Shown here: positions 5,847 to 23,641 of the stretch, in pieces
Numbering within the stretch: the stretch's first letter is position 1
Layout of the letters: the number at the start of each line of letters is the position of its first letter
From: a virus
Virus record (IMG/VR): IMGVR_UViG_3300013233_000246
Coordinates: 1-64,000 of that record
Direction: 5' to 3' (one strand)
Length of the DNA: 64,000 nucleotides
Notes under the pieces: generated by a model
What the model saw: the letters and a program-made list of their open reading frames with translations, nothing else
What the model was told of the DNA's origin: nothing
Databases searched by the model: none
Translations under genes and position numbers: made by a program

Positions 5847-7520
5847 ATGCCAATAGCAAAAAATAAACAAGAAGAATTTAATAAACAATACATAAATGGT
5901 TTATTGAATGAAAATAGAATAAAATTATTAGAACCATTTACAGGCGCAAAAAAACACCATACTATGGAATGTTTGGTATGTGGTCATATATGGAGAGCTA
6001 CACCTATATCCAAACGAAGAAATTATAAAATTTATGGTAAAGGTGGTTGCCCACAATGCAATACGACCACTCGCGATACTGGATATAAAAAAATAAGAGA
6101 ACAAAATCTCAAAAAATTAAAAGATAGGGGAATTGTAGTTTTAACAAAAGATTATGATGGTAGGACATATCTTGATTATGATAACAACCCACATAAAAAA
6201 ATAAAAGTAAAAAATCTTAATTGTGGGCATATATTTGAATGTTCACCAAGTAATCTATTAAACGCAAAAACAGAGTGTGCAATATGTGGGCCACAAAACA
6301 GGGCGAAGCCATTAATACAGTGGTCTAAAAACAATTCCAAAGAATGGAAAAAAACAGCAGGTGAATGGGAAATATATAGGAATTCCGCCCATGAATTAAC
6401 ACGACTAGAATACAATAAAAATAAACATATTATAAATCCAAAGAATCTGCCACGTGGTAAAGCTGGTGTTGTAGGAGCTTATCATCTTGATCACATAGTT
6501 CCAGTGAGATTTTGTTTTGATAACAATATACCACTTGAAGTTTGTGCACATATATCCAATTTACAAATGTGTCCATGGAGAGATAATATATCTTCACGAA
6601 ATCACATAAAAGGATCGCTACCGCCAATGTTCTTACAGTATGTTGAAAGTGGAAAGCGTATCAAAAAACTGGCGAATAGTCTAAAAGTACAAATTTTACC
6701 CAATGCCAAGTTATTTTATCAATTGGATGATATCAACATTACACTTTATGATAAAAAATCTAAAGTGGGGATTGTTATAATACCGTTGGATAAATCATTT
6801 GCTAATATGAAAACTGCACATCTTTCTATGAAAACTATGCAAAAAAATAACATCAAACCATTTATAATTTTTGAAGATGAACTCAATAAAGATTTTATTG
6901 TTAATAAAATAGAACATTATTTAGGTAAATCCAATAAGAACATACATAGGATTCATGGCAGAAAATGCATTATTAAACAAATAGAATCTAAAGAAAAATC
7001 AAAATTTTTGAATACTTACCACATTCAAGGAAATGATAAATCCCAAATATCTTATGCCGCCTATCACGAAGACGAATTGGTCGCAGTAATGACATTCACC
7101 AAACCTCGTCCACTATTGGGATATAAAGATCCAGATAGAAGTGTGTATGCTGACATGTGGGAATTATCACGATTTGCAACTAATACAAATTATAGAATTC
7201 CTGGGATAGCAAGTAAGCTATTATCTACTTTTAAAAATGAAAATGTATGGGAAAAAATAATAAGTTATGCAGATAAGCGATGGAGTGTCGGGAATCTTTA
7301 CGATGTTCTTGGATTTACTATGGAAAAATCTAATCCCCCTGATTATTTTTATATTGTTGATGGTATACGAAAACACAGATGGAATTATAGAAAAGATAAA
7401 TTAAAAGAAATATTGTCAAATTATGACCCAAATATTACAGAATATGAAAACATGGAGAATGCTGGATATTATAGGCTGTGGGGATGTGGCACCTTGCGGT
7501 ACGTTCTTATAAATACTTAA
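5847..7520 (+). CDS. HNH homing endonuclease with decayed Vsr-like core
   Basis: ATG at 5847 is chosen because GTGGAG lies six bases upstream; an earlier in-frame ATG at 5796 precedes the promoter. Residues 42-71 and 126-147 carry two Cys-pair zinc-ribbon-like units (CLVCG...CPQC; CGH...CAIC). An HNH site follows at ~213-253 (HLDHIVP, Asn238, Asn247/252, His253). Residues ~285-380 align with the nuclease region of the endonuclease at the window's left end (IFEDE, YLGKSNK) but lack its acidic catalytic strand. The last ~170 residues are the same C-terminal module (YADKRWSVGN ... KHRWNYRKDKL). Inserted between gene 23 and the following late genes. Confidence 0.85.
   Translation: MPIAKNKQEEFNKQYINGLLNENRIKLLEPFTGAKKHHTMECLVCGHIWRATPISKRRNYKIYGKGGCPQCNTTTRDTGYKKIREQNLKKLKDRGIVVLTKDYDGRTYLDYDNNPHKKIKVKNLNCGHIFECSPSNLLNAKTECAICGPQNRAKPLIQWSKNNSKEWKKTAGEWEIYRNSAHELTRLEYNKNKHIINPKNLPRGKAGVVGAYHLDHIVPVRFCFDNNIPLEVCAHISNLQMCPWRDNISSRNHIKGSLPPMFLQYVESGKRIKKLANSLKVQILPNAKLFYQLDDINITLYDKKSKVGIVIIPLDKSFANMKTAHLSMKTMQKNNIKPFIIFEDELNKDFIVNKIEHYLGKSNKNIHRIHGRKCIIKQIESKEKSKFLNTYHIQGNDKSQISYAAYHEDELVAVMTFTKPRPLLGYKDPDRSVYADMWELSRFATNTNYRIPGIASKLLSTFKNENVWEKIISYADKRWSVGNLYDVLGFTMEKSNPPDYFYIVDGIRKHRWNYRKDKLKEILSNYDPNITEYENMENAGYYRLWGCGTLRYVLINT
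7508..7515 (+). promoter_or_regulatory. Consensus T4 late promoter inside endonuclease end
   Basis: Exact TATAAATA, followed by C as in the extended T4 late consensus. The expected transcription start, six bases after the element, coincides with the ATG at 7521. Confidence 0.6.
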
Positions 7521-7880
7521 ATGAAACTATATCAACTATTTGAAAATCCCACAGATTTTTCTAACCTCATAAAAGATAAGTATAACCTTACTACATTCTT
7601 TGTATATGAACGTCCTGACACAATAGCCCTAGATATGATAGAAGTGCCAAAGGCTGATCGCAAACAGGGTATTGGAACAGCAGTAATGAACGAACTTATA
7701 CAATACGCAGATGAACAAGGCAAAAGAATAGTATTGACCCCAGGACTTAAAGATGATAGGCATGGCACCACATCACGTGCACGCTTAGTAAAATTCTACA
7801 AACGCTTTGGTTTTGTTGAAAATAAAGGTAGAAATAAAGACTTCGCAATATCAGATGGTATGTTCCGAAATCCCCAATAG
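7521..7880 (+). CDS. GNAT acetyltransferase with capsid-targeting-like leader
   Basis: A 119-residue GNAT-fold N-acetyltransferase. The acetyl-CoA pyrophosphate loop is VPKADRKQGIGTAVMNEL (residues ~39-56, R-x-x-G-I-G), then a beta strand (RIVLTPGL) and RLVKFYKRFGFV near 95-106. It begins MKLYQLFE|N, strikingly like the T4 internal-protein leader MKTYQEFIAE, with an (L/I)-x-Glu site for gp21. The ATG follows the endonuclease stop directly and has no ribosome site. Substrate unknown. If packaged, it could modify host proteins after injection, as T4 Alt does with ADP-ribose; this is inference. Confidence 0.75.
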   Translation: MKLYQLFENPTDFSNLIKDKYNLTTFFVYERPDTIALDMIEVPKADRKQGIGTAVMNELIQYADEQGKRIVLTPGLKDDRHGTTSRARLVKFYKRFGFVENKGRNKDFAISDGMFRNPQ

Positions 7881-17777: not shown

Positions 17778-19280
17778 ATGGCAGCAGATCCACGATTTAA
17801 TTTTATTATTAGTTGTCCTAATGCGGGTAAAAAATCACAAGAAGACGGCTTTAATAGGAAGGAGTTTTTCGGCACTTTGGGAAAAATTGGTGATATTGAA
17901 GCACTTAATCGTATAGGTGGTGGTAAAGTATCACAAGGATTGCGCAGCCTAGCGTCCGCATCAGATGCCATACGTAGTGGTGATACGTCGTCTGCAATAA
18001 TAACAAATGGTGTTTCTGGTGATCAATCGGGTGCTAATGTGGTGCTTGCTGAAGTAGGTATTAACCCACAACAAGCACAGAAAGCAGGTCAATTTAATCC
18101 AGGTGTATTAAACCGTGGTATCGCAGAAGCCGAAAACGTTTTCGAGCAAGTTAAGCAGGGTGATTTCACATTAGAAAAAATACCTGGTTCTTTTCAGAAC
18201 TTACAAAATTTATCAGATTTGGCTGGTGGTGTTTTTACTGAAGAAGCAACAGCCACCCCAATAGAATTGTGTGGTGCTAAACCATATGCTAGAGCCTTGA
18301 TCAACTTCGCACCAAAACACAAATTTATGTTTGTTGTGCAGTTTACATTCAAAGAAGAATATGCAAGGTTTGATGATTCTGGAAGATATATGGCATTTGT
18401 AGTAAAGACATCTTCAAGACCAAATATCAATATAGAACACGAAGATGTTAATATGTATAACTTCTGGTCTAAGGTGGCAAGAAAAACTACATACGAACCA
18501 ATAACTATGCGTTTTCATGATGACCAAGCCAGCAAGACGCAATATTTTATCAATAACTATATACGCGCAATAAGTCCTATTGCAAAAACAAGAACTAAGT
18601 TTGATAACCAAGGCGGAAATTCTAATCATGCGTGGTTAGAAGATCGTGGTATGATAAATGGTACTGATAAAACGGCTTCATTGACAAAACTTAAAGGTGA
18701 CAATACATCAATATTTGATGAAATAAGAGTATTTCACATTTACAATTATGGACAATTGATGTCTGTCAATACATATATAAATCCAAAAATAACATCTATA
18801 AATTTTGATGATTTGGACATGTCAGAGGGTTCTACCGCAAATGAGATAGAAATTCAATTTGCTTATGACGCGTTAAATATAATAGATCTATTTCCTATTA
18901 GGGGAAGCGAGAAGAAAGTTGAAGAGTTGTCTGGTGGTGCCATCGGTCAAGACCTTCATAGTATTGTTCCAGTATTTGAAGTTGGTCCATCAGCAGGCGA
19001 ATCGGCGGGTGGTAATTTTGGTATAGAAGATTCTATCACACCAGCATCCGACACCGACATTGAAGATCCATCTGGTTTAATAGCTGCCGGCTCGGATTTA
19101 ATTGATGGGGCAATTTCAACCGCACAGGATGCAGTTGCTTCAGTACAAGGTGTTGTGAGTGGTGTAGTTTCGACGGCAAATTCTAAGATTGATGCATTGC
19201 AAGCAGAACTTGCAGCGGGCGGCCCCGATAGTGGTAAGACACCTAATGGCTTTGGTAAAATACCCAATGGGTTTGGATAA
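17778..19280 (+). CDS. Second tail-tube-fold protein (baseplate/tube junction, gp48/gp54-like)
   Basis: A 500-residue protein. The centre (residues ~175-385) repeats the tube-subunit plan of gp19: KHKFMFVVQFTF, FVVKTSSRPNINIEHEDVNMYNFWSKVARKTTYEPITMRFHDD, VFHIYNYGQLMSVNTYINPKIT and EIEIQFAYDAL. The ~170-residue N-terminal extension and the Ala/Ser-rich C-terminus, ending in a repeated NGFGK(I)PNGFG, are extra. T4 gp48 and gp54 are known tube-fold proteins linking baseplate and tube; this is the likeliest role. Ends with a TAATG overlap into gene 4. Confidence 0.65.
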   Translation: MAADPRFNFIISCPNAGKKSQEDGFNRKEFFGTLGKIGDIEALNRIGGGKVSQGLRSLASASDAIRSGDTSSAIITNGVSGDQSGANVVLAEVGINPQQAQKAGQFNPGVLNRGIAEAENVFEQVKQGDFTLEKIPGSFQNLQNLSDLAGGVFTEEATATPIELCGAKPYARALINFAPKHKFMFVVQFTFKEEYARFDDSGRYMAFVVKTSSRPNINIEHEDVNMYNFWSKVARKTTYEPITMRFHDDQASKTQYFINNYIRAISPIAKTRTKFDNQGGNSNHAWLEDRGMINGTDKTASLTKLKGDNTSIFDEIRVFHIYNYGQLMSVNTYINPKITSINFDDLDMSEGSTANEIEIQFAYDALNIIDLFPIRGSEKKVEELSGGAIGQDLHSIVPVFEVGPSAGESAGGNFGIEDSITPASDTDIEDPSGLIAAGSDLIDGAISTAQDAVASVQGVVSGVVSTANSKIDALQAELAAGGPDSGKTPNGFGKIPNGFG

Positions 19281-19726
19281 TGAAAACTAAACAACATAAA
19301 AAGGGATTTTTTGTTCCTAGAAATCCACACAAATACATTGGTGATCTCAACAATATAGTCTTCCGCTCATCTTGGGAAGAAACTTATATGCAATTCCTAG
19401 ATAATAATATGCAGGTTAAGCGTTGGGGTTCGGAAATAATATCCATCCCATACATAAAACCCACTACGGGTAGAGTCCATAAGTATTTCCCAGATTTTTA
19501 TGTAGAATATGAAAACCGCAATGGTGAATTGCTTAAAGAAGTCATTGAAGTAAAGCCATTAAAACAAATCAAGAAGCCTACTGTCCGTGGAAAAAGTAAG
19601 AAAACACAACTTTATGAAAGCTTGACGTGGGCAATTAATATGTCTAAATGGAAGTCAGCCCAACTTTTCTGTGATAAATACGGGTTCAAGTTTAAAATAA
19701 TGTCTGAACGGGATATATATAAATGA
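19280..19726 (+). CDS. 4: Head completion protein (gp4)
   Basis: 148 residues, close to T4 gp4 in length and order: VPRNPHKYIGDLNNIVFRSSWE, then VKRWGSEIISIPYIKP, RVHKYFPDFYVEY, EVIEVKPLKQ and TWAINMSKWKSAQLFCDKYGFKFKI. The RSSWE...PDF...EVK set is a PD-(D/E)XK nuclease signature. In T4 this protein is needed to finish DNA-filled heads before tail joining. Its ATG overlaps the previous TAA and its TGA overlaps the gene 16 start. Confidence 0.92.
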   Translation: MKTKQHKKGFFVPRNPHKYIGDLNNIVFRSSWEETYMQFLDNNMQVKRWGSEIISIPYIKPTTGRVHKYFPDFYVEYENRNGELLKEVIEVKPLKQIKKPTVRGKSKKTQLYESLTWAINMSKWKSAQLFCDKYGFKFKIMSERDIYK

Positions 19727-20181
19727 GCACAGAAATTAAAACAATTGAAGAGTTGGTGGAACATCCATTGGAAGAAGCCTTCGACATCGAACCTGGTACC
19801 ACAGTATCAGTGCATACTGAACGTTCATCTGAGATGGTTGAAACTGAACAGTATGATAATAAAGATGATGAAATTGATGAGCAGTTTCAAGAGATATATG
19901 ACCGTGCAATGGCAGCATTTGAAGATCAGGTCGCAGAAGCTGAAGTAGTAGAAGGCAAATATAAAGCACGTAATATGGAAGTTGGTGTTCAATTACTAAC
20001 AGCAGCTCTTCACGCAGCGAAAGAAAAATCTAACCAAAAACAACACAAAGATAAATTAGATGTTGCGAAGAAAAAGGCAACCGGACAAACAAATACACAG
20101 AACAACGTTTTTGTTGGAAGCCACAAAGATATCATAGATAGATTACTCCAAAAAGGAAATACGTACGATCAGGAAGAATGA
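19723..20181 (+). CDS. 16: Small terminase subunit (gp16)
   Basis: 152 residues (T4 gp16: 164). An acidic N-terminus is followed by a long helical segment DEQFQEIYDRAMAAFEDQVAEAEVVEGKYKARNMEVGVQLLTAALHAAKEK, the oligomerising coiled region of gp16, and a C-terminal NNVFVGSHKDIIDRLLQ tail. It recognises DNA ends and regulates gp17. ATGA overlap with gene 4; the 17-paralogue and gene 17 follow. Confidence 0.88.
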   Translation: MSTEIKTIEELVEHPLEEAFDIEPGTTVSVHTERSSEMVETEQYDNKDDEIDEQFQEIYDRAMAAFEDQVAEAEVVEGKYKARNMEVGVQLLTAALHAAKEKSNQKQHKDKLDVAKKKATGQTNTQNNVFVGSHKDIIDRLLQKGNTYDQEE

Positions 20182-20204
20182 TTGGTAACCTACTTAATTT
20201 AAGG

Positions 20205-20212
20205 GCTAAATA
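20205..20212 (+). promoter_or_regulatory. Weak late promoter with extended CTATT match
   Basis: GCTAAATA followed by CTATT. The core has two mismatches to TATAAATA but the downstream bases match the extended T4 late consensus. The expected start six bases on is exactly the ATG at 20218. Confidence 0.35.
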
Positions 20213-20217
20213 CTATT

Positions 20218-20955
20218 ATGAAAGAACATCTACTGGAAAAGTTAACTACATATAAAGAATTAGCACTTTGCGCAAAAGACCCTGTTTACTTTATTGATAA
20301 TTATGCTACTTGTATAAATCCAACACATGGCAATTTTCCCATGGTGCTTCAGGAATATCAAGAAGATTTATTAAAGACATATGTTAATAGTAATACAATA
20401 GTTAATGCACCCAGACAATCTGGTATAACATTAACAACAAGCATGTATATTTTGTGGTATGCGATGTTTAATCCATTTAAAACTATAGGGATAATATCTG
20501 ATAAAAGACAAAGTACCTTTTATAATTTAGTGATGGTACGCCACGCATACAACAATCTTCCCGATTTTCTTAAAGAGATTGTTGGTATTAAAGTCAACAA
20601 TAAGGGATCTATGCAATTTTCAAACGATTCGTTGATTTTAGCACTTTCCACTGAACCTTGTTCTATGCGTGGAATATCTTTTGATATGATACATTTGGAT
20701 AATTTTTCTTATGTTAAAGAAAGTAAACAGGAAGATATATATGACTACGTTCAAATATCTACATATGCCAACAAATCAAAGATAATAATAACCTCAACGG
20801 GAGCTAATGCTGTAGGAAAGTTCCATGAACTATTTCAAGATGCTTTAGTAGGTATGAATTCCTTTAAGTCTGTGCACATAAAAATAGATAGTCTTTCTCC
20901 ACAATATAAAAGATTAATCGTTAAGGAGGATGATTATGGCACGCAAATTAAATAA
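20218..20955 (+). CDS. Catalytically dead, truncated paralogue of large terminase ATPase
   Basis: 245 residues that align along their whole length with residues ~20-250 of the downstream gp17: CAKDPVYFIDNYA against CATDPVYFISSYV, YILWYAMFNPFKTIGIISDK against YLLWFAMFNRDKTILIAANK, RGISFDMIHLDNF against RGMAISLLFLDEF. The catalytic residues are replaced: Walker A is APRQSGIT (Lys to Ile70) and Walker B is HLDNF (catalytic Glu to Asn162). The TST coupling motif remains (192-194). The nuclease domain is absent. The frame is intact and overlaps gp17 by 20 bases, so it looks retained rather than decaying. A regulatory or structural partner of the motor is inferred. Confidence 0.8.
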   Translation: MKEHLLEKLTTYKELALCAKDPVYFIDNYATCINPTHGNFPMVLQEYQEDLLKTYVNSNTIVNAPRQSGITLTTSMYILWYAMFNPFKTIGIISDKRQSTFYNLVMVRHAYNNLPDFLKEIVGIKVNNKGSMQFSNDSLILALSTEPCSMRGISFDMIHLDNFSYVKESKQEDIYDYVQISTYANKSKIIITSTGANAVGKFHELFQDALVGMNSFKSVHIKIDSLSPQYKRLIVKEDDYGTQIK

Positions 20956-22492
20956 TAGATTAAGAACAGAAAATCAAGAAATAGAATATACCGAAGAACA
21001 CGTAGCAGAACTTTTAACGTGTGCCACAGATCCTGTTTATTTTATTAGTAGTTATGTCAAAGTACAACATCCAACCAAAGGTGCTATGCCATTTAAACTA
21101 TATGACTATCAGAAAAAGATGGTTAATATTTTTCATACAGAAAGATATAGTATAACGCTTTCTGCAAGACAAACAGGAAAATCTGTAACATCCGCCGCAT
21201 ATCTATTATGGTTTGCGATGTTTAATCGTGATAAAACTATTCTTATTGCCGCAAATAAAAATGCCAATGCCATGGAAATGATATTGCGTATACGTTACGC
21301 ATATGAAGAATTGCCATTTTGGCTTAAGCCTGGTGTTAAAGATGATGGTTGGAATAAACATGAAATTGGTTTTGATAATGGTTCGCGTATAGTATCAACA
21401 GCCACCTCGGCTGATTCTGGTCGTGGTATGGCTATTTCGTTATTGTTCCTCGATGAATTTGCATTTGTTAAACCAACAATTCAAGATGAATTTTGGACAT
21501 CAATATCACCAACACTATCAACTGGTGGTGCTTGTATAATGACATCAACCCCCAATGGTGATATGAACATTTATGCCCAGGTGTGGCGTGCAGCATTGGC
21601 TGGCACGAATGGTTATAAGCCAATCCATGTTAAGTGGAATGAACCGCCTGGTCGCGATGAAAGATTCAAGGAAGAGGAAATTGGTCGCATTGGTACAAGA
21701 CGTTGGTCGCAAGAATATGAATGTGAATTTTTGTCATCTGATGCACAATTGATCGATTCTTTGTTTTTGGCAAACCTTACAAAAGAACTGGATGGAATTT
21801 TACCATTAACAAATATCCGTGGTGTTACGTTTTTCGAGAAGATTAACCCAGCGTCAACATACTTGGTTGGCGTAGATCCATCGTCGGGTAACGGCGAAGA
21901 CTTTAGTGTAATTGAAGTATTTGAATTTCCTTCATTAAAACAGGTTGCAGAATATCGTTCCAATACAATGTCAATGAAAGATTTATATGACGTTTTGAAG
22001 AATGTTTTATTATATCTTGAAGATAGGGCAGAAACTGTGTTCTTTTCAATAGAAAATAATGGCGTTGGTAATGGTCTTATTACATTACACGAAGCCGATG
22101 AAGATCCAGTAACATTAGCAGAATTTATTTCAGAACCTGGTAAGGAAAAAATGGGGTTTACAACAACCGCCAAAAGTAAGATGAAGAACTGTGTTACTTT
22201 TAAAGAAATAATTGAACGTGGACAGATGAAAGTTAAGTCGCATACCCTATTGAGTGAAATGAAATCGTACGTAAGATATAAGGGTGCCTATGCAGCGCAG
22301 GCTGGTGCATCTGATGACTGCATATCTGCATGTCTTATAGTTATACGTATATTGGAAGAAATATCACAATATGAAACTGCCGCATACGAAACCTTGTATT
22401 CCGCAGAAGTGCAAGAATGGGATTCAGAAACATGGGATGGATATGATGGTGGTTACGACGAATCGGAAGAAGGTTTGCCTATTTTATTATAA
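20936..22492 (+). CDS. 17: Large terminase subunit (gp17), ATPase-nuclease
   Basis: ATG at 20936 is chosen because AAGGAGGA ends five bases before it; an ATG at 20930 overlaps that site. 518 residues. ATPase: Walker A SARQTGKS (76-83, Lys82), Walker B LLFLDE (Asp173, Glu174), coupling motif TSTPNG (203-208). RNase H-type nuclease: Asp314 in GVDPSSGNGEDFSVIEV, Glu373 in SIENNGVG, Asp460/461 in SDDCISACL. It powers DNA translocation into the prohead and cuts headful ends. The gene is shorter than T4 gp17 (610). Confidence 0.95.
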   Translation: MARKLNNRLRTENQEIEYTEEHVAELLTCATDPVYFISSYVKVQHPTKGAMPFKLYDYQKKMVNIFHTERYSITLSARQTGKSVTSAAYLLWFAMFNRDKTILIAANKNANAMEMILRIRYAYEELPFWLKPGVKDDGWNKHEIGFDNGSRIVSTATSADSGRGMAISLLFLDEFAFVKPTIQDEFWTSISPTLSTGGACIMTSTPNGDMNIYAQVWRAALAGTNGYKPIHVKWNEPPGRDERFKEEEIGRIGTRRWSQEYECEFLSSDAQLIDSLFLANLTKELDGILPLTNIRGVTFFEKINPASTYLVGVDPSSGNGEDFSVIEVFEFPSLKQVAEYRSNTMSMKDLYDVLKNVLLYLEDRAETVFFSIENNGVGNGLITLHEADEDPVTLAEFISEPGKEKMGFTTTAKSKMKNCVTFKEIIERGQMKVKSHTLLSEMKSYVRYKGAYAAQAGASDDCISACLIVIRILEEISQYETAAYETLYSAEVQEWDSETWDGYDGGYDESEEGLPILL

Positions 22493-22531: not shown

Positions 22532-23641
22532 ATGAATGATTTAAGAACAGAATTTATTACATGGTATTTCAACGAATTCACGCACACGGACTTATTCCGC
22601 AAGATGTTGGAGACTGTTGAAGGTTCACCGCACCACCGTGAAACCAATGTAGGTGTACATACCAATATGGTAGTGGGTCAATACATATCCACAAGCAATG
22701 AACATTGGACGCTTGAAGTTCTAATTGGGGCATTTGTGTGCGCCTTTCATGATACTGGTAAGCCATATTCACGTCAAGAGGCATTTAGTGAAGAACGTGG
22801 TAAGTACTACCGATTTGGTGGGCATGAACTATCGTCTGCGCGTTTTTGGGAAACTTGGGCAGTGGATAATTACGAAACCCTTACTGATCTGTTTGATTTA
22901 ACGGCTTTGGATATATATGCCATTGGGATTCTCATAGAAAATCATCTTCCTTGGTCAATCAAAAAGCCCGCAAAACGCATTGCTTTGGCACAAAGCATTA
23001 AGGGTGTAGCAGATTTTGACACCTTCCGTGATATATTATTTGCGGATACTTGGGGTCGTATATCAGATGACGGGATAGAAAAACGTGCCACTGTCACCAA
23101 ATGGTGTGAAGATTTTGAAGTATTATATAACGATGTTGAAAATTTTAACGCAAATATTGGCAAATCAGACGCACCAGTAGCCTATGTGCTTATTGGCGCT
23201 TCTGGGTCTGGCAAATCTACATTTTTTGCTAATCTGAAGGATGATTTTGAGCATTTCTCTTTAGATTGTTATCGTCACGAATGGTATGACATGGAAGATT
23301 ATCGAAACGCGTTTAAACTGGCGTGTGAAGATAAGAAGTTTATTGATAAGGCAAATTTTGAATATGCTACTATGACCCGTTCTGGAAAGAGTATAGCATT
23401 AGATAATACTAATACTTCCAAGAAACGTCGTGCGAATTATATTCGCCAAGCCAGAGCCAAAGGATATAAGGTAGTTGCTGTAATATTCCCAATAGGGTTA
23501 CAAACCTTATTGGATCGTCAACATACTCGTGGTGAGAAGACGGTTCCAGAAGATGTTGTTCGCAGACAATATATGACATTGAGTTTACCAGCATATGGCG
23601 AGTTTGATGAAATAATAGTATCAGATGGTAACCTTAAATAA
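22532..23641 (+). CDS. HD-Pnk: HD phosphoesterase fused to 5'-OH polynucleotide kinase
   Basis: 369 residues. The N-terminal HD-superfamily phosphohydrolase has His43, His73-Asp74 (FHDTGKP), His98 and His138. The C-terminal kinase has P-loop GASGSGKST (222-230), DNTNTSKKRR (291-300, compare T4 Pnk DTNLNPERR) and a lid DRQHTRGEKTVPEDVVRRQY. This order matches the bacterial HD-Pnk end-healing enzymes (Runella type), where HD removes 2',3'-phosphates and the kinase phosphorylates 5'-OH ends, preparing broken RNA for ligation. T4 uses a kinase-HAD enzyme (PseT) instead. No ribosome site precedes the ATG. Followed by a terminator. It likely works with the Rnl1 gene at 56664. Confidence 0.88.
   Translation: MNDLRTEFITWYFNEFTHTDLFRKMLETVEGSPHHRETNVGVHTNMVVGQYISTSNEHWTLEVLIGAFVCAFHDTGKPYSRQEAFSEERGKYYRFGGHELSSARFWETWAVDNYETLTDLFDLTALDIYAIGILIENHLPWSIKKPAKRIALAQSIKGVADFDTFRDILFADTWGRISDDGIEKRATVTKWCEDFEVLYNDVENFNANIGKSDAPVAYVLIGASGSGKSTFFANLKDDFEHFSLDCYRHEWYDMEDYRNAFKLACEDKKFIDKANFEYATMTRSGKSIALDNTNTSKKRRANYIRQARAKGYKVVAVIFPIGLQTLLDRQHTRGEKTVPEDVVRRQYMTLSLPAYGEFDEIIVSDGNLK

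What the first reader, a model, noticed from the sequence alone, without database searches (positions are those of the whole stretch)
20218..22492. Dead ATPase paralogue of the terminase encoded just before gene 17
The 245-residue protein aligns with the gp17 ATPase domain along its length, but Walker A Lys is Ile70 and the Walker B Glu is Asn162, and it has no nuclease domain. The frame is intact and carries the strong ribosome site of gene 17 within its end. Loss of only catalytic residues while the fold-defining positions remain suggests selection for a non-catalytic role, such as a motor subunit poisoning or tuning gp17, an adaptor for gp16, or an immunity factor against rival phage packaging.
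Basis: partly seen in the sequence, partly recalled or inferred. Interest (0 to 1): 0.82.

Follow-up and report, generated by a model that had tools for sequence, protein, structure and literature searches.

The report
Dead copy of phage packaging motor
Just before the gene for its DNA-packaging motor, this T4-like phage keeps a conserved copy of the motor's ATPase domain that has lost the residues needed to split ATP; the same arrangement recurs in other, mostly giant, T4-like phages, which points to an uncharacterised non-catalytic packaging part or a decoy rather than debris.

Summary
Window 20218-20955 encodes a 245-aa paralogue of the ATPase domain of the adjacent T4-type large terminase (TerL, 20936-22492), lacking the Walker A Lys (Ile70), the catalytic Glu (Asn162), the lid and the nuclease. 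It is not debris. Nine distinct relatives, each directly before terL, all lack both residues and also the alternative 'deviant' P-loop Lys. They form one clade, and dN/dS is 0.13-0.20. They keep the Q-motif Gln, P-loop Arg, Walker B Asp and, in 8 of 9, an Arg at the place of the P74-26 trans-acting finger. Three close relatives have lost the gene but keep its promoter-like element, so it is accessory.

Cultured Rak2-like jumbo phages (CBB, GAP32, XbC2, Kaldavass, BF, SNUABM_12) carry an equally dead paralogue at the same place. Sinorhizobium phages phiM12 and phiN3 carry a catalytically intact-looking one between gp16 and gp17. A 2017 paper noted 'truncated large terminases' in these phages as unusual; I found no report of catalytic death, conservation or function. 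The most likely reading is a selected pseudo-ATPase partner or regulator of the packaging motor. A gp16 adaptor or a decoy for TerL-sensing immunity (Avs) remain open. No functional test exists.

The parts
19280..19726 (+). gp4-like head-closure gene (context)
   Evidence: phrog_218 head closure E 1e-49
19723..20181 (+). gp16-like small terminase (context)
   Evidence: phrog_445 terminase small subunit E 4e-11
20183..20212 (+). promoter-like element (T)GGTAAC-N16-CTAAATA immediately before the start codon
   Evidence: Conserved in position and sequence in all 9 paralogue loci and kept upstream of terL in L012, L013, L014, which lack the gene; 0.15 expected per shuffled window. Promoter function inferred.
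20218..20955 (+). catalytically dead TerL ATPase-domain paralogue, 245 aa
20407..20430 (+). P-loop residues 64-71 (APRQSGIT): Arg66, Gln67, Gly69 kept; Lys -> Ile70; no deviant Lys at 64
   Evidence: deviant-Lys TerLs
20668..20670 (+). Arg151 of the 'RG' motif, 11 residues before the Walker B Glu position; candidate trans-acting Arg finger
   Evidence: kept 8/9 in this family and 5/5 in Rak2-like paralogues; matched to P74-26 R139 by offset and by published topology, not by a structural superposition
20698..20703 (+). Walker B Asp161 kept, catalytic Glu -> Asn162
20791..20805 (+). motif III (TSTGA; TerL TSTPN): Ser193 kept, Pro and Asn lost in 9/9
20923..20929 (+). ribosome-binding site AAGGAGG of terL
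   Evidence: sequence
20936..22492 (+). active-type T4 large terminase gp17 (SARQTGKS, FLDEFA, TSTPNG, RNaseH-like nuclease)

Best explanation
A duplicated TerL ATPase domain has become a pseudo-ATPase that selection retains as a non-hydrolysing partner of the packaging terminase. It is transcribed with gp17 from a promoter-like element at its start, folds like the gp17 ATPase core, and most likely binds TerL (or TerL on the portal, or with gp16) through the conserved ATPase-domain faces. The most specific version is that it sits beside an active TerL subunit and offers Arg151 to that neighbour's ATP site without hydrolysing ATP itself, so it tunes motor start, speed, pausing or assembly. SHOWN: homology, predicted fold, uniform loss of catalytic residues, purifying selection, position, accessory distribution. 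INFERRED: promoter function, failure to hydrolyse ATP, binding to TerL/portal/gp16, action of Arg151 in trans, and the direction of its effect.
For: Lys and Glu are lost in 9/9 relatives, while Q48, R66, Q67, G69, D161 and S193 are kept 9/9 and R151 8/9. In a second, very divergent group, Rak2-like paralogues lose Lys and Glu 5/5 yet keep Q48, R66, G69, R151, G152 and D161 5/5, although on average only 1.9 of 5 keep a TerL-invariant residue. dN/dS is 0.13-0.20 here and 0.15-0.29 in Rak2-like phages. The window family is one clade (100/98). It always sits beside terL in this group. Published work shows that T4 pentamers tolerate inactive subunits but then pause and slow (PMC8589836), so such doping is mechanically possible, and that terminase sites are completed in trans by a neighbour's Arg (PMC5727402).
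Against: Physical association with TerL is untested. The window's copy lacks the lid, which in models of other motors makes inter-subunit contacts, so it may not enter a ring. The gene is lost in close relatives and not found in XacN1, CM1, PA5oct and T4. Its dN/dS is about five times that of TerL, unlike a tightly fitted motor part. Phosso's copy lies 52 kb from terL and lacks the RG Arg. phiM12/phiN3 copies keep Lys and Glu. Arg151-Gly152 could be kept for fold reasons alone.
Confidence: 0.5

Rival explanations
1. gp16 (small terminase) adaptor or sink: the dead domain mimics the TerL surface that gp16 stimulates, and so controls how gp16 loads on or leaves TerL.
For: The gene sits exactly between gp16 and gp17 in the window clade and in phiM12/phiN3. 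gp16 acts on the gp17 ATPase and has both stimulating and inhibiting effects (PMC9958956).
Against: In Rak2-like phages the preceding gene is phrog_15898 of unknown function, not a recognised gp16. No interface evidence.
Confidence: 0.17
2. Decoy for host immunity that senses terminase: Avs1-Avs3-type STAND NTPases recognise TerL, and a dead TerL look-alike could occupy them without triggering, or be made first to blunt sensing.
For: The model matches Avs3-bound terminase (8dgc) among its PDB hits. Avs systems are reported to recognise TerL (PMC12931631). Fast evolution, accessory distribution and loss of exactly the nucleotide-binding residues would fit.
Against: 8dgc is matched only because it contains a terminase. 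No Avs link was found in these phages. A decoy need not sit beside gp16/gp17 nor keep the RG Arg. No report found.
Confidence: 0.12
3. Exclusion of rival or superinfecting phages by poisoning their terminase.
For: Dominant-negative ATPase domains are a simple way to do this; accessory, fast-evolving gene.
Against: Equal danger to the phage's own TerL; late-type promoter motif and location suit the phage's own packaging better.
Confidence: 0.06
4. Non-functional relic of a terL duplication, or only a translational leader for terL.
For: Lost cleanly in L012, L013 and L014; terL ribosome site overlaps the 3' end in some members; C-terminus truncated in several.
Against: dN/dS 0.13-0.20 with upper bounds 0.21-0.32, no stops or frameshifts in any member, conserved structural and binding residues, parallel case in Rak2-like phages.
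Confidence: 0.05
5. Role outside packaging (DNA binding, regulation, another complex) gained after duplication.
For: Phosso's and Atu_ph07's copies lie away from terL.
Against: Strong linkage to terL in the other groups; retention of ATPase-site and RG residues.
Confidence: 0.1

Closest known systems
'Truncated large terminase' CBB_274 / GAP32_268 of Rak2-like jumbo phages (Mimasvirus, Eneladusvirus; PMC5259590)
   Same: ATPase-domain-only paralogue, 229-236 aa, directly before or overlapping terL; Walker A Lys and catalytic Glu lost; P-loop Arg, Walker B Asp and RG Arg kept; purifying selection.
   Different: Only ~25% identical to TerL and to the window family; common ancestry with the window family not resolved; lid end kept; preceding gene not recognised as gp16. 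The paper calls it truncated and unusual, with no remark on catalytic residues or function in the passages read.
Second gp17-like gene of Sinorhizobium phages phiM12 and phiN3
   Same: ATPase-only paralogue sits exactly between gp16 and gp17.
   Different: Keeps the P-loop Lys (RATGKTT) and Walker B Glu (YIDEIEY); ends at motif III.
T4 gp17 / TerL ATPase domain (PDB 2O0J, 3CPE; PF03237)
   Same: Fold and most structural positions.
   Different: Catalytic Lys and Glu, motif III Pro-Asn, lid and nuclease missing.
T4 gp17'A, gp17'B, gp17'' (internal-start products annotated in T4 gene 17)
   Same: A phage makes more than one TerL-derived polypeptide.
   Different: Those are N-terminally shortened forms of the active protein; here a separate gene encodes an inactive N-terminal domain.
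Regulatory dead paralogues in general, e.g. trypanosome AdoMetDC prozyme (PMC5201418)
   Same: Catalytically dead copy that acts on its active partner.
   Different: Unrelated proteins; only an analogy of how it might work.

Membership tests
T4-type large terminase (gp17) | T4-type terminase ATPase fold | tested here: met
   Pfam Terminase_6N, Foldseek T4 gp17
T4-type large terminase (gp17) | P-loop Lys, classical or deviant position | tested here: not met
   0/9 at position 70; Ala/Gly at position 64
T4-type large terminase (gp17) | Catalytic Glu after Walker B Asp | tested here: not met
   N/N/N/N/D/N/C/N/N
T4-type large terminase (gp17) | C-terminal RNaseH-like nuclease | tested here: not met
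   ORF ends in or before the lid; Terminase_6C found only in the downstream gene
Truncated TerL paralogue upstream of terL (Rak2-like, phiM12-like) | ATPase-only paralogue immediately upstream of terL in a T4-superfamily phage | tested here: met
Truncated TerL paralogue upstream of terL (Rak2-like, phiM12-like) | Common ancestry of the paralogues (one duplication) | tested here: inconclusive
   Window family is one clade (100/98); Phosso joins at 82/82 only; Rak2-like profile does not separate dead from active sequences
Pseudoenzyme under selection | Uniform loss of catalytic residues with purifying selection on the rest | tested here: met
Pseudoenzyme under selection | No ATP hydrolysis | not testable with these tools
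   needs purified protein
Hetero-oligomeric ring with catalytic and non-catalytic subunits | Co-assembly with the active subunit | not testable with these tools
Split or intein-/intron-interrupted TerL | Upstream piece and downstream gene are complementary parts of one TerL | tested here: not met
   Downstream TerL is complete and the upstream ORF aligns over the same ATPase region; contrast L019, L068, RaK2, Atu_ph07

The most novel reading that the evidence does not exclude
Some T4-superfamily phages run a hetero-oligomeric packaging motor with a dedicated, gene-encoded non-hydrolysing subunit that completes a neighbour's active site through its RG Arg, unlike the homomeric TerL pentamer taken as the rule for tailed phages.
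Probability: 0.22. Interest if true: 0.85.

Novelty: new variant of a known kind. Interest (0 to 1): 0.62.

Why it matters
Phage packaging motors are modelled as homomeric ATPase rings, and how subunits coordinate, or tolerate dead neighbours, is debated with artificially doped motors. A natural, conserved, encoded dead paralogue, available in cultured phages (BF, GAP32, CBB, XbC2) with an active-looking counterpart in phiM12, would turn that question into a genetic experiment. If it is instead a decoy for terminase-sensing immunity, it would be a new kind of anti-defence protein.

Tried and rejected
Deviant P-loop Lys: considered because L159, L167, L245 and L249 TerLs carry KxRQxG[IF]; rejected because position 64 is Ala/Gly in all nine and the Glu is also lost. 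Interrupted TerL: rejected because the downstream TerL is complete. Assembly error: rejected because independent contigs carry orthologues in frame (72-89% identical).

Pattern search for distant relatives with the family alignment found no usable stretch; TerL search of GTDB genomes found none. Scanning viral contigs with the promoter-like element returned mostly unrelated DNA, so it is not a specific tag; in larger relatives it is rare and often no more frequent than the reversed control. Clade membership of Phosso's and Rak2-like paralogues: unresolved. 121Q gene 3 and RaK2 ORF110 sit at the same place but are too divergent to read motifs. A basic residue in the loop before motif III of the paralogues, absent in TerLs of the same clade, was seen but not used because the loop alignment is uncertain and the comparison was made after the fact.

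Literature: no report found of a catalytically dead TerL paralogue. Only open-access papers are held, so the GAP32, RaK2 and phiM12 genome papers were not read.

Full report
What is there. The window lies in a 93,125-bp IMG/VR virus record. Gene order is sheath (15289), tube-like proteins, gp4-like head closure (19280-19726), gp16-like small terminase (19723-20181), the paralogue (20218-20955), and TerL/gp17 (20936-22492). The paralogue is 245 aa, 32% identical to TerL, a Terminase_6N domain, and is predicted with good confidence as the gp17 ATPase core (pLDDT 87; best PDB matches 2O0J and 3CPE).

It is a family. Relatives of the paralogue were found directly upstream of terL in L003 (85%), L004/L006 (73%), L005 (partial, 89%), L007, L010, L011, L015 (a 363-kb contig), L016 and L055. 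With the window's own copy that makes nine full members. All nine lack the Lys (I,I,M,V,L,S,I,I,S) and the Glu (N,N,N,N,D,N,C,N,N). All 31 TerLs compared keep both. Of 48 columns nearly invariant in TerL, twelve are kept in all nine (among them Q48, R66, Q67, G69, W80, D161, S193) and R151-G152 in eight. Among those lost in all nine are K70, E162 and the motif III Pro. Some other terminase families place a Lys two residues before the P-loop Arg and have a hydrophobic residue at position 70; the family here has Ala or Gly there, so neither Lys is present.

It is selected. dN/dS (Nei-Gojobori) is 0.136 (bootstrap 0.08-0.21) for window/L003, 0.150 and 0.131 for the other close pairs and 0.198 for L011/L055; TerL gives 0.02-0.07. 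The paralogue is therefore constrained, but changes about five times more readily than TerL. In the ATPase-domain tree, with the two catalytic columns left out, the nine form one clade (100/98) whose branching resembles that of their TerLs. Long-branch attraction is a caveat.

It can be lost. A promoter-like element, ATTGGTAAC-N15/16-GTAAATA, ends 5-6 bases before the paralogue's ATG in the nine loci (with one or two substitutions in some). The same element stands upstream of terL in L012, L013 and L014, which lack the gene; L012 even keeps ATGGAAATAGGATAA and the derived TTAAGGAAGAT ribosome site. In the full TerL tree L010 pairs with L014 (100/100) and L015 with L013 (100/99), and the bearers as one clade are rejected (p-AU 2e-6). 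Repeated clean loss is the simplest reading. L017, L020 and L057 have a similar GTAAC...TAAATA...ATG directly on terL, which suggests that the paralogue arose by duplication between this promoter and terL (inference).

It recurs in cultured phages. A profile of the family found a second ATPase-only frame directly upstream of terL in jumbo phage CBB, annotated as a terminase large subunit, with homologues in GAP32, Kaldavass, XbC2, six pEa_SNUABM phages and BF. The five distinct proteins compared lack the Lys (L,L,L,L,I) and the Glu (S,D,S,S,D) and keep Q48, R66, G69, R151, G152 and D161 in all five, against a mean of 1.9 of 5 over TerL-invariant columns. dN/dS is 0.15 for Kaldavass/XbC2 at unsaturated dS, against 0.045 for TerL. 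Sinorhizobium phage Phosso has a standalone dead copy (GRSMGIT, FADNA) 52 kb from terL, annotated as small terminase. Atu_ph07 has a weak, similar one. In phiM12 and phiN3 the paralogue lies between gp16 and gp17 with Lys and Glu intact and ends at motif III. XacN1, CM1, PA5oct, phage G, Munch and T4 show no such second frame at the sensitivity used. Whether all these derive from one duplication is not resolved.

What was known. Buttimer et al. [quoted passage not shown] I found no statement on catalytic residues, selection or function. The new points here are the window's own family, the uniform catalytic death with retained binding and finger residues in two groups, the measured selection, the recurrent loss with its scar, and the contrast with phiM12/phiN3.

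How it may work. The pattern (hydrolysis residues gone; P-loop Arg, adenine Gln, Walker B Asp and the RG Arg kept) is what a non-hydrolysing partner of an active TerL would need. In P74-26 the trans finger is R139, placed between alpha2 and beta3, where T4 also has an Arg (PMC5727402). Arg151 sits 11 residues before the Glu position, as R139 does before E150 (that spacing is from my own knowledge; no superposition was made). D6E and phi29 use another position, so the finger assignment is tentative. T4 motors doped with inactive subunits still package but pause more (PMC8589836). Against a simple ring subunit, the window's copy lacks the lid and the gene is dispensable over evolution. A gp16 adaptor and a decoy for TerL-sensing Avs immunity remain possible. 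No experiment bears on any of these.

Noticed in passing
L265 2309-3154 (PV764938.1 249808-250653): Sinorhizobium jumbo phage Phosso gene annotated 'terminase small subunit' is really a standalone dead TerL ATPase domain (K->I, E->N).
   Followed up: partly
L266 1918-2652 (MF403008.1 439917-440651): Atu_ph07 hypothetical protein AUZ95386 is a weak match to the same ATPase domain with GRQVGSS instead of a P-loop Lys, and is 24% identical to Phosso's copy.
   Followed up: partly
L019 4956-7151; L068 2462-4266: TerL interrupted exactly at the Walker A motif: an intein-like insert after RQTGK in L019, and a split at RQTGKS in L068.
   Followed up: no
window 20184-20212 and 7508-7523; L014 9621: Late-promoter-like TAAATACT motifs ending a few bases before an ATG, suggesting leaderless or near-leaderless late mRNAs in this phage group.
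   Followed up: partly
L020, L017, L057 upstream of terL: GTAAC-(N)-TAAATA element directly on the terL start codon, apparently the state before the paralogue was inserted.
   Followed up: partly
L290 2001-2711 (Serratia phage BF): BF's dead paralogue differs from pEa_SNUABM_12's in a residue next to the P-loop Arg (HRECGIT versus HRGCGIT), a further drift of the dead P-loop.
   Followed up: no
window 22532-23641: Gene after terL with a C-terminal AAA_33 kinase-like P-loop domain (Pfam E 1e-15) and an N-terminal part that looks like an HD-type phosphohydrolase by eye.
   Followed up: no
L291 1570-2253; L292 2038-2718: 121Q gene 3 and RaK2 ORF110 (phrog_27915, unknown function) occupy the paralogue's place before terL but are too divergent to recognise as terminase.
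   Followed up: partly
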